Shown here piece after piece: positions 52,093 through 64,000 of a stretch of DNA of 64,000 nucleotides (positions are counted from its first letter, which is position 1; each line of letters begins with the position of its first letter). Below the pieces are notes generated by a model. That model was not told the DNA's origin, did not search any database, and worked only from the letters and a program-made list of their open reading frames with translations. The translations under genes were made by a program, and so were the position numbers. Source of the DNA: Brevibacterium sp. UCMA 11754 (GTDB lineage: Bacteria; Actinomycetota; Actinomycetes; Actinomycetales; Brevibacteriaceae). The stretch spans positions 414,424 to 478,423 of the forward strand of contig NZ_JACBOT010000001.1 in assembly GCF_021532275.1 (NCBI RefSeq), written 5' to 3'.

Positions 52093-53685
52093 TCAGCTCT
52101 TCGTCCAGTCCGCCAGATTCCACCATGGACCCCAGTCGGAGCCGTGGACGTGGGGTTCGAACGTGGTGTCAGGAACGTCCCAGCCGTCGGTGTCGGCGAC
52201 ATAGGTGTGTTCGAGGAAGGCGACGATGAGATAGCTGGGGTCGTCCATGTAGAGGTCCTGGACCCGGCGGTAGTCCGCGTTGGCCTTCGCCTCATCGGTC
52301 TCCTCGGCGGCATGGTCGAGGAGTTCGTCGGCTCCGGGAATCTCCACGTCGGAAGGATTGTCGAAGACCCCGGAGGTGCTTGTGTGGGTGTGCAGCGCCG
52401 CCCTGATCTGGTGATCGATGTTGTAGGGCTGCTCCCCACCGGCGTAGACGATCGCCTGCTTGGTCATGGACTTCTCGATCTCGTCCCATTCGTCGGCTTC
52501 GACTTCGACGGTGATGCCCAAGGGTTTGAGCTGTGCGGCCACCTCGGCGGCGATGTCCCCGCGCACGGAGTCACCGGCGGGATAGGTGAACGGGATGCTC
52601 GCGCTCTGACCGTTCTTGGAACGAAGGCCGTCGTCACCCTTCTTCCATCCGGCATCGTCGAGCATTCTCTGCGCGGCCTTGACGTCGAGTTCGAAATTTG
52701 CCGAGGGTTCGTAGGCGTCGCCGTAGAACTCACCGACCGGGGTCGAGGCCGGTGTGCCGTGGCCGGCGAGGACCTCGTCGACGATCTTGTTCCGGTCGAT
52801 GGCGATGTTGAGTGCCTTGCGAACGGTCGCCGAGGCGGTGAACGGGTTGTCAGAGGGCAGGGTCAGTCCGCGCCAGTCGGCGGTTCTCGCGGTGACGATC
52901 TCATGGTCCTCCCCCGCGATCTTGTCGACCGAGCGCGGTGGCACGGCTGCCCCGGAGACCTTGCCGTCTGAGACTGCTGCCGCCAGCGCGGAGGAATCCG
53001 CGTAGGCCTGGATCGTCACCGATTTCAGTTCCGGAGTGGTGCGCCAGTAGTCGTCCGTGGCCTTCAGCACCGCGGTGTCCGAGGTCAGGGATTCCAGGAC
53101 GTAGGCACCGGTGCCGACGGGTTCGCTGTTGACGCTCCAATCGGCGGCCGGAGTGCCCTTTTCGATGGCCTCGCTGGGCAGGATCCCCAAGGTCAGCCGT
53201 GAGGCGAACGTGGGCGTCGGCTCGCTCAACCGGAAGACGACGGTGGACTCATCCGGTGTCTCGATGTCCTCGATCATCCGGAATGCGTCGACGACTTCCG
53301 AGGCGGAGTCGGGGTCGATGATGGCCCGATAGGTGGCGGCCACGTCCTGCGCATCGAAAGCGGAGTCATCGGAGAACGTCACGCCCTCACGCAGTTTCAC
53401 CGTCCATGCGCTCGAGTCCTCATTCGCCTTCGGTTCCGCGGCTGCCAGCGCCGGTGTCAGGTCCGGCATCTGTCCAGTTCCCGGGTCCTCCTGCAGGCGC
53501 AGCAGGCCGTCGTAGAAGGGTGAGTTGCCGTCGACGGAGTAGCCGTTGACGGGGTTGTATCCGCCGAGGTCCTCGGTGCCGATGACCAGCTGCGAGTCGC
53601 CCCCGTCGGGGGCCTCGCACGCGGAGAGTACGAGTGCGAGCGCCCCCACAGAGGCCACCAGCGCCGAGGTTGTCCTTCGTTTCAT
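52093..53685 (-). CDS. Family 5 ABC transporter substrate-binding lipoprotein, probable nickel uptake
   Basis: The 530-residue protein begins with a lipoprotein signal (KRRTTSALVASVGALALVLS then the LSAC lipobox, Cys23). The body has the family-5 (oligopeptide/nickel) pattern: DGLLRLQEDPGTGQMPDLTP, WTVKLREGVTFSDDSAFDAQDV and ALNIAIDRNKIVDEVLAGHG. Family-5 proteins bind peptides or nickel complexes. It starts 14 bp after ureG in the same direction, so nickel is the best guess. A second, frameshifted copy lies in the inverted arm at 63393. Confidence 0.88.
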   Translation of the reverse strand: MKRRTTSALVASVGALALVLSACEAPDGGDSQLVIGTEDLGGYNPVNGYSVDGNSPFYDGLLRLQEDPGTGQMPDLTPALAAAEPKANEDSSAWTVKLREGVTFSDDSAFDAQDVAATYRAIIDPDSASEVVDAFRMIEDIETPDESTVVFRLSEPTPTFASRLTLGILPSEAIEKGTPAADWSVNSEPVGTGAYVLESLTSDTAVLKATDDYWRTTPELKSVTIQAYADSSALAAAVSDGKVSGAAVPPRSVDKIAGEDHEIVTARTADWRGLTLPSDNPFTASATVRKALNIAIDRNKIVDEVLAGHGTPASTPVGEFYGDAYEPSANFELDVKAAQRMLDDAGWKKGDDGLRSKNGQSASIPFTYPAGDSVRGDIAAEVAAQLKPLGITVEVEADEWDEIEKSMTKQAIVYAGGEQPYNIDHQIRAALHTHTSTSGVFDNPSDVEIPGADELLDHAAEETDEAKANADYRRVQDLYMDDPSYLIVAFLEHTYVADTDGWDVPDTTFEPHVHGSDWGPWWNLADWTKS

Positions 53686-53699
53686 ATCATCGACTCAGT

Positions 53700-54431
53700 T
53701 CAGTGCTGGTGGGCTTCTCCACCTTCGGCATGGGTGTGCAGATAGCCTTCGCCTTCTTCCTCGGCGTGGAAGTGCGGGGCCATCGGGCCGGGGTCGACCG
53801 GGGTGTGATCACCTTTGACGAAACGGGCGTGGACCTCGCGGACCCAATCGGCCAGTGCGTCAACGGTTTCGGGGACCTTGCGGGAGACTCCGAGCACGGG
53901 CCCGCCCTCGCGTGCCTTCTTCGCGTCCTCGAGCATGAGATCGACGTCGACATCGACGTGCGGGCCGAGGTCGATCTTGTTGATGATCAGGAGGTCGGCG
54001 CGACCGATTCCCGGCCCGCCCTTGCGTGCCACGTCACCGCCGCCGGCGACATCGAGGACGAAGAGCTGGGCGTCGACGAGCGCTGGTGAGAATGTGGCGG
54101 TGAGGTTGTCGCCGCCGGATTCGATGAGGACGATGTCGAGGGGGTCGAAGTCCTCTTCGAGGGCCTCGACGGCCAGCAGGTTCATGCTCACGTCGTCACG
54201 GATGGCGGTGTGCGGGCAGGCACCGGTCTCGACGGCGCGGATGCGCTCATCAGGCAGGACTCCTGCGGCCTTGAGGAAGCGTGCGTCCTCATCGGTGTAG
54301 ATGTCATTCGTGATGACGCCGATGCGGAACTCCTGCGCGAGCGCGGTGCAGATATTGGCGATCGAGGAACTCTTGCCGGTGCCGACAGGCCCGGCGATGC
54401 CCAAGCGAAGTGCTCGTTTTCCAGTGCTCAT
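53700..54431 (-). CDS. ureG: Urease accessory GTPase UreG with a C-terminal histidine-rich tail
   Basis: UreG is the SIMIBI GTPase that drives nickel insertion into urease. The 243-residue protein has P-loop GIAGPVGTGKSS (residues 11-22), NDIYTDEDARFL, the metal-binding Cys-Pro-His in ETGACPHTAIRDD, ESGGDNLTATFSP and the guanine-specific IINKIDLG. After the normal end (about residue 215) it continues PMAPHFHAEEEGEGYLHTH and ends in HQH, six His in 24 residues. No ureE is found in the operon, so the tail may store or deliver nickel; that is inference. Confidence 0.95.
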   Translation of the reverse strand: MSTGKRALRLGIAGPVGTGKSSSIANICTALAQEFRIGVITNDIYTDEDARFLKAAGVLPDERIRAVETGACPHTAIRDDVSMNLLAVEALEEDFDPLDIVLIESGGDNLTATFSPALVDAQLFVLDVAGGGDVARKGGPGIGRADLLIINKIDLGPHVDVDVDLMLEDAKKAREGGPVLGVSRKVPETVDALADWVREVHARFVKGDHTPVDPGPMAPHFHAEEEGEGYLHTHAEGGEAHQH

Positions 54432-54492
54432 TGTCTCTCCTTCTCTTCGTGGTGGTCCTTGTGGGTTGTGGATGTCAGGTGAGTCGTGGGGC

Positions 54493-62586: not shown

Positions 62587-62647
62587 GCCCCACGACTCAC
62601 CTGACATCCACAACCCACAAGGACCACCACGAAGAGAAGGAGAGACA

Positions 62648-63378
62648 ATGAGCACTGGAAAACGAGCACTTCGCTTGGGCATCGCCGGGCCTGTCGGCAC
62701 CGGCAAGAGTTCCTCGATCGCCAATATCTGCACCGCGCTCGCGCAGGAGTTCCGCATCGGCGTCATCACGAATGACATCTACACCGATGAGGACGCACGC
62801 TTCCTCAAGGCCGCAGGAGTCCTGCCTGATGAGCGCATCCGCGCCGTCGAGACCGGTGCCTGCCCGCACACCGCCATCCGTGACGACGTGAGCATGAACC
62901 TGCTGGCCGTCGAGGCCCTCGAAGAGGACTTCGACCCCCTCGACATCGTCCTCATCGAATCCGGCGGCGACAACCTCACCGCCACATTCTCACCAGCGCT
63001 CGTCGACGCCCAGCTCTTCGTCCTCGATGTCGCCGGCGGCGGTGACGTGGCACGCAAGGGCGGGCCGGGAATCGGTCGCGCCGACCTCCTGATCATCAAC
63101 AAGATCGACCTCGGCCGCACGTCGATGTCGACGTCGATCTCATGCTCGAGGACGCGAAGAAGGCACGCGAGGGCGGGCCCGTGCTCGGAGTCTCCCGCAA
63201 GGTCCCCGAAACCGTTGACGCACTGGCCGATTGGGTCCGCGAGGTCCACGCCCGTTTCGTCAAAGGTGATCACACCCCGGTCGACCCCGGCCCGATGGCC
63301 CCGCACTTCCACGCCGAGGAAGAAGGCGAAGGCTATCTGCACACCCATGCCGAAGGTGGAGAAGCCCACCAGCACTGA
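62648..63378 (+). CDS. ureG: Urease accessory GTPase UreG, right-arm copy with a frameshift
   Basis: This is identical to the left UreG up to INKIDLG; then one C is missing near 63113 (GGCCGC for GGCCCGC) and the frame shifts. The proper C-terminal half, including the His-rich tail, continues in the next frame to 63378. The uncorrected frame runs on to 63391 with unrelated residues. Confidence 0.85.
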
Positions 63379-63392
63379 ACTGAGTCGATGAT

Positions 63393-64000
63393 ATGAAACG
63401 AAGGACAACCTCGGCGCTGGTGGCCTCTGTGGGGGCGCTCGCACTCGTACTCTCCGCGTGCGAGGCCCCCGACGGGGGCGACTCGCAGCTGGTCATCGGC
63501 ACCGAGGACCTCGGCGGATACAACCCCGTCAACGGCTACTCCGTCGACGGCAACTCACCCTTCTACGACGGCCTGCTGCGCCTGCAGGAGGACCCGGGAA
63601 CTGGACAGATGCCGGACCTGACACCGGCGCTGGCAGCCGCGGAACCGAAGGCGAATGAGGACTCGAGCGCATGGACGGTGAAACTGCGTGAGGGCGTGAC
63701 GTTCTCCGATGACTCCGCTTTCGATGCGCAGGACGTGGCCGCCACCTATCGGGCCATCATCGACCCCGACTCCGCCTCGGAAGTCGTCGACGCATTCCGG
63801 ATGATCGAGGACATCGAGACACCGGATGAGTCCACCGTCGTCTTCCGGTTGAGCGAGCCGACGCCCACGTTCGCCTCACGGCTGGACCTTGGATCCTGCC
63901 CAGCGAGGCCATCGAAAGGGCACTCCGGCCGCCGATGGAGCGTCAACAGCGAACCCGTCGGCACCGGTGCCTACGTCCTGGAATCCCTGACCTCGGACAC
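63393..64000 (+). CDS. Family 5 substrate-binding lipoprotein, right-arm copy, partial and frameshifted
   Basis: The first 160 codons match the left-arm lipoprotein, including the LSAC lipobox. Around 63882-63935 there are several indels (CTGGACC for CTGACC, TTGGATC for TTGGGGATC, GAAAGGG for GAAAAGGG, GATGG for GATTGG) that break the frame. The window ends inside the gene. Confidence 0.85.
   Translation, partial: MKRRTTSALVASVGALALVLSACEAPDGGDSQLVIGTEDLGGYNPVNGYSVDGNSPFYDGLLRLQEDPGTGQMPDLTPALAAAEPKANEDSSAWTVKLREGVTFSDDSAFDAQDVAATYRAIIDPDSASEVVDAFRMIEDIETPDESTVVFRLSEPTPTFASRLDLGSCPARPSKGHSGRRWSVNSEPVGTGAYVLESLTSD

What the first reader, a model, noticed from the sequence alone, without database searches (positions are those of the whole stretch)
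53075..64000. Giant inverted duplication of the urease operon with a 4-nt turn inside ureA
The sequence runs 5.46 kb outward from 58,536/58,537 as a near-perfect palindrome. Both arms lack the same 5' part of ureA, the spacer is only TGCT, and a native self-complementary ATGACGTCAT sits at the turn. Long perfect palindromes are normally destroyed by SbcCD-type nucleases, and a functional duplication would not cut ureA at the same base twice. A fold-back chimeric read or contig-end assembly artefact is the best explanation. The biological alternative, a palindromic amplification or a hairpin end, would be remarkable.
Basis: partly seen in the sequence, partly recalled or inferred. Interest (0 to 1): 0.75.

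Follow-up and report, generated by a model that had tools for sequence, protein, structure and literature searches.

The report
Fold-back sequencing artefact at contig end
The giant mirror-image copy of the urease genes at the end of this Brevibacterium contig is very likely a laboratory fold-back artefact: another contig of the same assembly runs straight through the turn into ordinary DNA, and 26 of its 42 contigs carry mirror repeats of the same kind.

Summary
In detail: window 53075-64000 is a 10.9-kb inverted repeat (99.5% identical) with a 4-nt turn at 58535-58538 inside ureA. It is very likely not a feature of the chromosome. (1) The window's end is the end of contig C1, so the right arm stops where the contig stops. 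(2) Contig C20 of the same assembly matches both arms (99.6-99.7%) over 1.9 kb, then runs through the turn into a whole ureA and upstream genes; five related Brevibacterium loci agree with C20 at the turn. (3) A pattern for the fold-back junction is found in 1 of 57 Brevibacterium genomes, this one; the native junction in 7 of 57, this one included, on C20. (4) The assembly holds 27 palindromes of 6.9-28 kb in 26 of 42 contigs; 25 of 27 touch a contig end, and 16 of 27 are crossed by another contig. None was found in 21 interior stretches or in 80 urease loci of other species. Likely source: a 3' end that snapped back on a short native hairpin during amplification or library preparation. Raw reads were not available.

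The parts
53075..58534 (-). Left arm: the genuine copy, partial ureA to ureG and part of the next gene, continuous with unique DNA of C1
   Evidence: Inverted repeat; collinear with Brevibacterium antiquum L006
58535..58538 (.). Turn (loop TGCT)
   Evidence: Sequence; native TGCT between CTC and GAG
58532..58541 (.). CTC-TGCT-GAG: native 3-bp inverted repeat at which the sequence turns back; native DNA continues CACGTG after GAG
   Evidence: Comparison with contig C20
58522..58531 (.). Native self-complementary ATGACGTCAT beside the turn (mirror copy at 58542-58551)
58539..64000 (+). Right arm: very likely the false fold-back copy, ending at the contig end
   Evidence: Contig ends at window 64000; C20 and relatives do not turn back here
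56116..57945 (-). ureC, left arm (609 aa)
   Evidence: Urease_alpha and Amidohydro_1
55361..56107 (-). ureF, left arm
   Evidence: UreF
54493..55383 (-). ureD, left arm
   Evidence: UreD
53700..54431 (-). ureG, left arm
   Evidence: CobW/HypB/UreG domain
52093..53685 (-). Solute-binding protein gene; its first part lies in the left arm
   Evidence: SBP_bac_5
58439..58501 (-). ureA fragment, left arm (profile positions 78-98)
   Evidence: Urease_gamma match C1:472862-472924
58526..58636 (+). ureA fragment, right arm (profile positions 62-98, one stop inside)
   Evidence: Urease_gamma match C1:472949-473059
59131..60960 (+). ureC mirror copy, right arm (609 aa)
   Evidence: Urease_alpha match C1:473680-474036; ORF
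60969..63998 (+). Mirror copies of ureF, ureD, ureG and the start of the solute-binding protein gene (ORFs 60969-61715, 61693-62586, 62648-63391, 63393-63998)
   Evidence: ORFs, inferred from the mirror; not scanned with Pfam
55254..55276 (.). Disordered patch: 14 of the 28 columns at which the arms differ

Best explanation
The right arm is very likely a fold-back (palindromic) long-read artefact left at the end of contig C1, and the chromosome most likely carries one ordinary urease operon that continues from C1 into contig C20. Shown: the palindrome, its position at the contig end, a second contig through the turn, the relatives' arrangement at the turn, and 26 further palindromes of the same kind in this assembly. 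Inferred: during amplification or library preparation a single-stranded 3' end inside ureA snapped back on the native CTC-TGCT-GAG, was extended along its own strand, and was sequenced as one palindromic molecule of about 11 kb or more; the assembler then kept its second half as a contig extension where coverage was probably thin.
For: C1 ends at window 64000. C20:13422-15315 matches the right arm at 99.68% and the left at 99.63%, and C20 continues 13,421 bp past the turn with a 100-aa ureA and ureB, collinear with L006 and L008. C20 and five relatives agree at the turn, both arms of C1 depart. Fold-back junction in 1 of 57 genomes of the genus, native junction in 7 of 57. 27 palindromes in 26 of 42 contigs, 25 of 27 touching a contig end, 16 of 27 crossed by another contig; 0 of 21 interior stretches, 420 kb; 0 of 80 urease loci of other species. 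The turn lies on a native 3-bp inverted repeat with a 4-nt loop; 2.1% of shifted control positions pair 3 bp or more.
Against: No reads were seen. 11 of 27 palindromes had no crossing contig in what was held. Support for snap-back as the route is modest: 8 of 16 crossed turns show no pairing bases, and the C9 turn holds about 25 nt that are not native. C20 itself has probable errors: its ureC frame is broken where both arms agree with each other. C20 shares only about 0.5 kb upstream of the turn with one relative, L007.
Confidence: 0.8

Rival explanations
1. An artefact of another kind: a PacBio read whose SMRTbell adapter was missed or absent, so that both strands of one insert were read as one sequence, or a purely computational contig-end error.
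For: The same palindromes at contig ends would result. PMC6218980 names missed SMRTbell adapters as a source of palindromic reads in unamplified data (passage).
Against: At the C1 turn the sequence is not a blunt mirror: native CTC-TGCT-GAG is kept once, with a native loop. No turn of 27 scores above the 99th percentile of background for the adapter (sequence recalled); C9 and C31 reach the best value, exceeded or equalled by 3.9% of background. The platform is not known from any call.
Confidence: 0.17
2. A real inverted duplication or palindromic amplification in the cells, fixed or in a sub-population, next to the unrearranged arrangement seen on C20.
For: Both arrangements are present in the assembly; some turns lie on short native inverted repeats, as in-cell fold-back would also give.
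Against: 27 palindromes at unrelated places, 25 of 27 touching a contig end, none in 21 interior stretches. The right arm reaches no unique DNA. Fold-back junction in none of the other 56 genomes searched, though the pattern would miss diverged sequence.
Confidence: 0.025
3. A natural hairpin (covalently closed) end of a linear replicon at the turn.
For: A hairpin end read through would give a mirror sequence with a short loop (general knowledge).
Against: The sequence does not end at the turn: C20 continues 13,421 bp, as in relatives, one of them a 4.44-Mb contig. 27 such turns are far more than chromosome ends could be.
Confidence: 0.005

Closest known systems
Palindromic reads after whole-genome amplification (Pacasus, Warris et al. 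2018, PMC6218980; outline, Background section and 12 passages seen)
   Same: Long inverted copies in PacBio reads, sometimes several turns per read, which surface as inverted duplications in assemblies
   Different: Whether this genome was amplified, and on which platform it was read, is not known from any call
Fold-back artefacts in long reads (Breakinator, Heinz et al. 2026, PMC12870357; abstract, Background and Discussion seen)
   Same: Near-perfect forward-reverse copies of one stretch; the authors think library preparation the likely source
   Different: Described in reads; here seen in finished contigs
Palindromic contigs in Mycobacterium bovis assemblies (PMC9455707; three passages seen)
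   Same: Whole contigs that are one palindrome (81 contigs), judged by the authors likely assembly error
   Different: Here palindromes also sit at the ends of long contigs, and for 16 of 27 another contig crosses the turn

Membership tests
Fold-back long-read artefact carried into an assembly | Near-perfect inverted arms with a very short spacer | tested here: met
   99.49%, spacer 4 nt
Fold-back long-read artefact carried into an assembly | The turn is absent from other copies of the locus, which continue into unique DNA | tested here: met
   Contig C20 and five relatives' loci
Fold-back long-read artefact carried into an assembly | Recurs at unrelated places of the same data set, mostly at contig ends | tested here: met
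   27 palindromes in 26 of 42 contigs; 25 of 27 touch an end; 0 of 21 interior stretches
Fold-back long-read artefact carried into an assembly | The individual reads over the turn are palindromic and few | not testable with these tools
   No reads held
Whole-genome-amplification palindrome | DNA was amplified before sequencing | not testable with these tools
Missed SMRTbell adapter | Blunt mirror or adapter remnant at the turn | tested here: not met
   Native loop at the C1 turn; no adapter match above the 99th background percentile in 27 turns, adapter sequence recalled. A weak test
Real inverted duplication | Both arms continue into unique DNA | tested here: inconclusive
   The left arm does; the right arm is cut by the contig end, while C20 shows another continuation
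Hairpin end of a linear replicon | No sequence beyond the turn | tested here: not met
   C20 continues 13,421 bp

The most novel reading that the evidence does not exclude
A sub-population of this Brevibacterium carries genuine palindromic amplifications nucleated at many short native hairpins across the chromosome, the urease palindrome being one of at least 27, alongside the unrearranged chromosome represented by C20.
Probability: 0.02. Interest if true: 0.7.

Novelty: not a real feature. Interest (0 to 1): 0.07.

Why it matters
It matters as a warning. About 327 kb of this assembly lies in palindromes, so roughly 160 kb is probably false second arms. They inflate gene counts (three ureC hits, where one operon is most likely) and perhaps the contamination estimate of 4.31% (the link is inferred). 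A survey of gene copies or palindromes that includes such an assembly would report false inverted duplications.

Tried and rejected
Rejected: a fixed inverted duplication (contradicted by C20 and the relatives); a hairpin chromosome end (the sequence continues on C20); a plain missed adapter as the favoured route (weak test with a recalled adapter sequence); ATGACGTCAT as the snap-back stem (the bases paired at the turn are CTC/GAG). In one search ties were resolved in favour of pairing for the observed turns and not for the shifted controls, which favours the snap-back reading. Palindromes were sought only in what was held: short contigs whole, 20 kb at both ends of each long contig, the window, C29 to 40 kb, and 21 interior stretches; other interiors were not looked at. 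L158 (C8:100521-110520) was fetched and not used. Paper searches: led to the papers cited; two searches gave nothing further that I used; one search was a look for this strain's own report, listing only, and none was identified.

Full report
Observation. The last 10.9 kb of the window is an inverted repeat: arms 53075-58534 and 58539-64000, turn TGCT at 58535-58538, self-identity 99.49%. On the minus strand the left arm carries the end of ureA, then ureC (609 aa), ureF, ureD, ureG and the start of an SBP_bac_5 gene (Pfam). The ureB stretch of the left arm gave no Pfam match in the one ORF scanned (58098-58523), which fits the one-base deletions there; ureB is recognisable on C20. The right arm mirrors this.

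Where the window lies. It is the last 64 kb of contig C1 (478,423 bp) of a 42-contig, 4.74-Mb assembly. Its UreC is 99% identical to that of Brevibacterium antiquum DSM 21545 and 98% to that of B. aurantiacum XU54. The right arm is cut off by the end of the contig and never reaches unique DNA.

The contradiction inside the assembly. A third ureC hit lies on contig C20. C20:13422-15315 matches the right arm at 99.68% and the left arm at 99.63%. On its other side C20 does not turn back. It continues for 13,421 bp through a whole ureA (100 aa, Urease_gamma E = 2.3e-41) with ureB behind it, and upstream through genes that include two FecCD permeases, a periplasmic binding protein and an inositol-monophosphatase-family gene. 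C20 is collinear with B. antiquum L006 and B. sandarakinum L008; with B. aurantiacum L007 it shares only about 0.5 kb upstream of the turn. In a multiple alignment C20 and five Brevibacterium loci (L006-L010) agree through the turn, while both arms of C1 depart from all of them there. The only near-complete Urease_gamma match of the genome is on C20; C1 has two fragments.

The junction in the genus. A pattern for the fold-back junction (up to 3 mismatches) matched 1 of 57 Brevibacterium genomes, the window's own. The native junction matched 7 of 57, the window's own (on C20) among them; three of the six others are listed with one contig. The misses say little: 34 of 57 have no Urease_alpha match at all, and diverged urease genes would escape either pattern. 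Over the family's cut-off, 21 of 57 genomes have a Urease_alpha match, and only the window's own has more than one.

The same thing elsewhere in this assembly. I took the short contigs whole and 20 kb from both ends of each long one. Self-comparison found 27 palindromes in 26 of 42 contigs. They are 6.9-28.0 kb long; the one on C29 was cut by the fetched piece and is 28,013 bp. 25 of 27 touch a contig end within 100 bp; the other two are in C8 and C3, contigs that are folded more than once near an end. 35 of 84 contig ends lie in a palindrome, so 49 do not. For 16 of 27, another contig of the assembly passes the turn and continues for at least 300 bp; for 11 of 27 none did in what was held. 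Controls: 0 of 21 interior stretches (420 kb), 0 of 80 urease loci of other species (1,619,632 bases) and window 1-53074 hold no inverted self-match of 400 bp or more. Palindromes at many unrelated places, nearly always at contig ends, speak for a data artefact.

The error pattern. The arms differ at 28 columns: 14 in one disordered patch (left arm 55254-55276), 13 other indel columns, and one position inside the loop. In the 1.9-kb overlap with C20, four one-base deletions are in the left arm and one in the right, all within about 310 bp of the turn; at three further places both arms agree with each other against C20. C20's ureC frame is broken while both arms' are open, so C20 probably has errors of its own near its end. 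Thin long-read coverage near contig ends would look like this (inferred).

How it most likely arose. In the window's + orientation, native DNA reads CAT-CTC-TGCT-GAG-CACGTG. C1 follows it to GAG and then turns back into ATGACGTCATGG, the mirror of what stood before CTC. The turn therefore uses a native 3-bp inverted repeat with a 4-nt loop; 2.1% of shifted control positions pair 3 bp or more. This fits a 3' end that snaps back and is extended on its own strand (inferred). Over the 16 crossed turns the best placements give loops of 1-58 nt, 5 of 16 of them flipped, and 0-4 paired bases; 8 of 16 show none. The mean is 1.1 against 0.35 for shifted controls, with a bias from how ties were resolved. 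The C9 turn holds about 25 nt that are not native. No turn of 27 scores above the 99th background percentile for the SMRTbell adapter (recalled sequence). The laboratory step cannot be fixed without the reads.

Literature. Warris et al. 2018 (PMC6218980; outline, Background and passages) report palindromes in 40-50% of PacBio reads from amplified Arabidopsis DNA against 0.5% in the unamplified control, and inverted duplications in an assembly. Heinz et al. 2026 (PMC12870357; abstract, Background, Discussion) describe fold-back artefacts in Nanopore and PacBio reads and think library preparation the likely source. PMC13141652 (search listing and start of abstract only) reports that nanopore ligation libraries give chimeric reads, particularly inverted repeats, also in microbial DNA standards. 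An M. bovis pangenome study (PMC9455707; three passages) found 81 palindromic contigs, judged likely assembly error. The finding belongs to this known kind of artefact.

Verdict. Observation confirmed; artefact reading supported; biological reading not supported. There is most likely one urease operon, continuous from C1 into C20.

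Noticed in passing
G000, contig ends C1-C42 (L005, L086-L147, L157): 26 of 42 contigs carry palindromes, 326,956 bp in all; 15 of the 21 contigs under 25 kb are among them, and many overlap the ends of longer contigs.
   Followed up: yes
L005 (C20) 1-2677 and 13422-15315: C20 overlaps C29 at one end (C29:11349-14016) and C1 at the other, which suggests the order C29-C20-C1 in the chromosome.
   Followed up: partly
G000:C8:116994-130520 and G000:C3:1-24372: These contigs are folded more than once, like chained palindromic reads.
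   Followed up: partly
G000:C9 near 191409-191431: The turn of the C9 palindrome carries about 25 nt absent from the crossing contig C12, unlike the native loop of C1; its adapter similarity is equalled or exceeded by 3.9% of background.
   Followed up: partly
window 55254-55276: Disordered patch where the two arms differ at 14 columns, in the overlap of the end of ureF and the start of ureD.
   Followed up: no
window 35355-35402: A 48-bp stretch that matches its own reverse complement at 87.5%, a small hairpin unrelated to the palindrome.
   Followed up: no
L005 14446, 15033, 15275: Three one-base differences at which both arms of C1 agree against C20, whose ureC frame is broken.
   Followed up: partly
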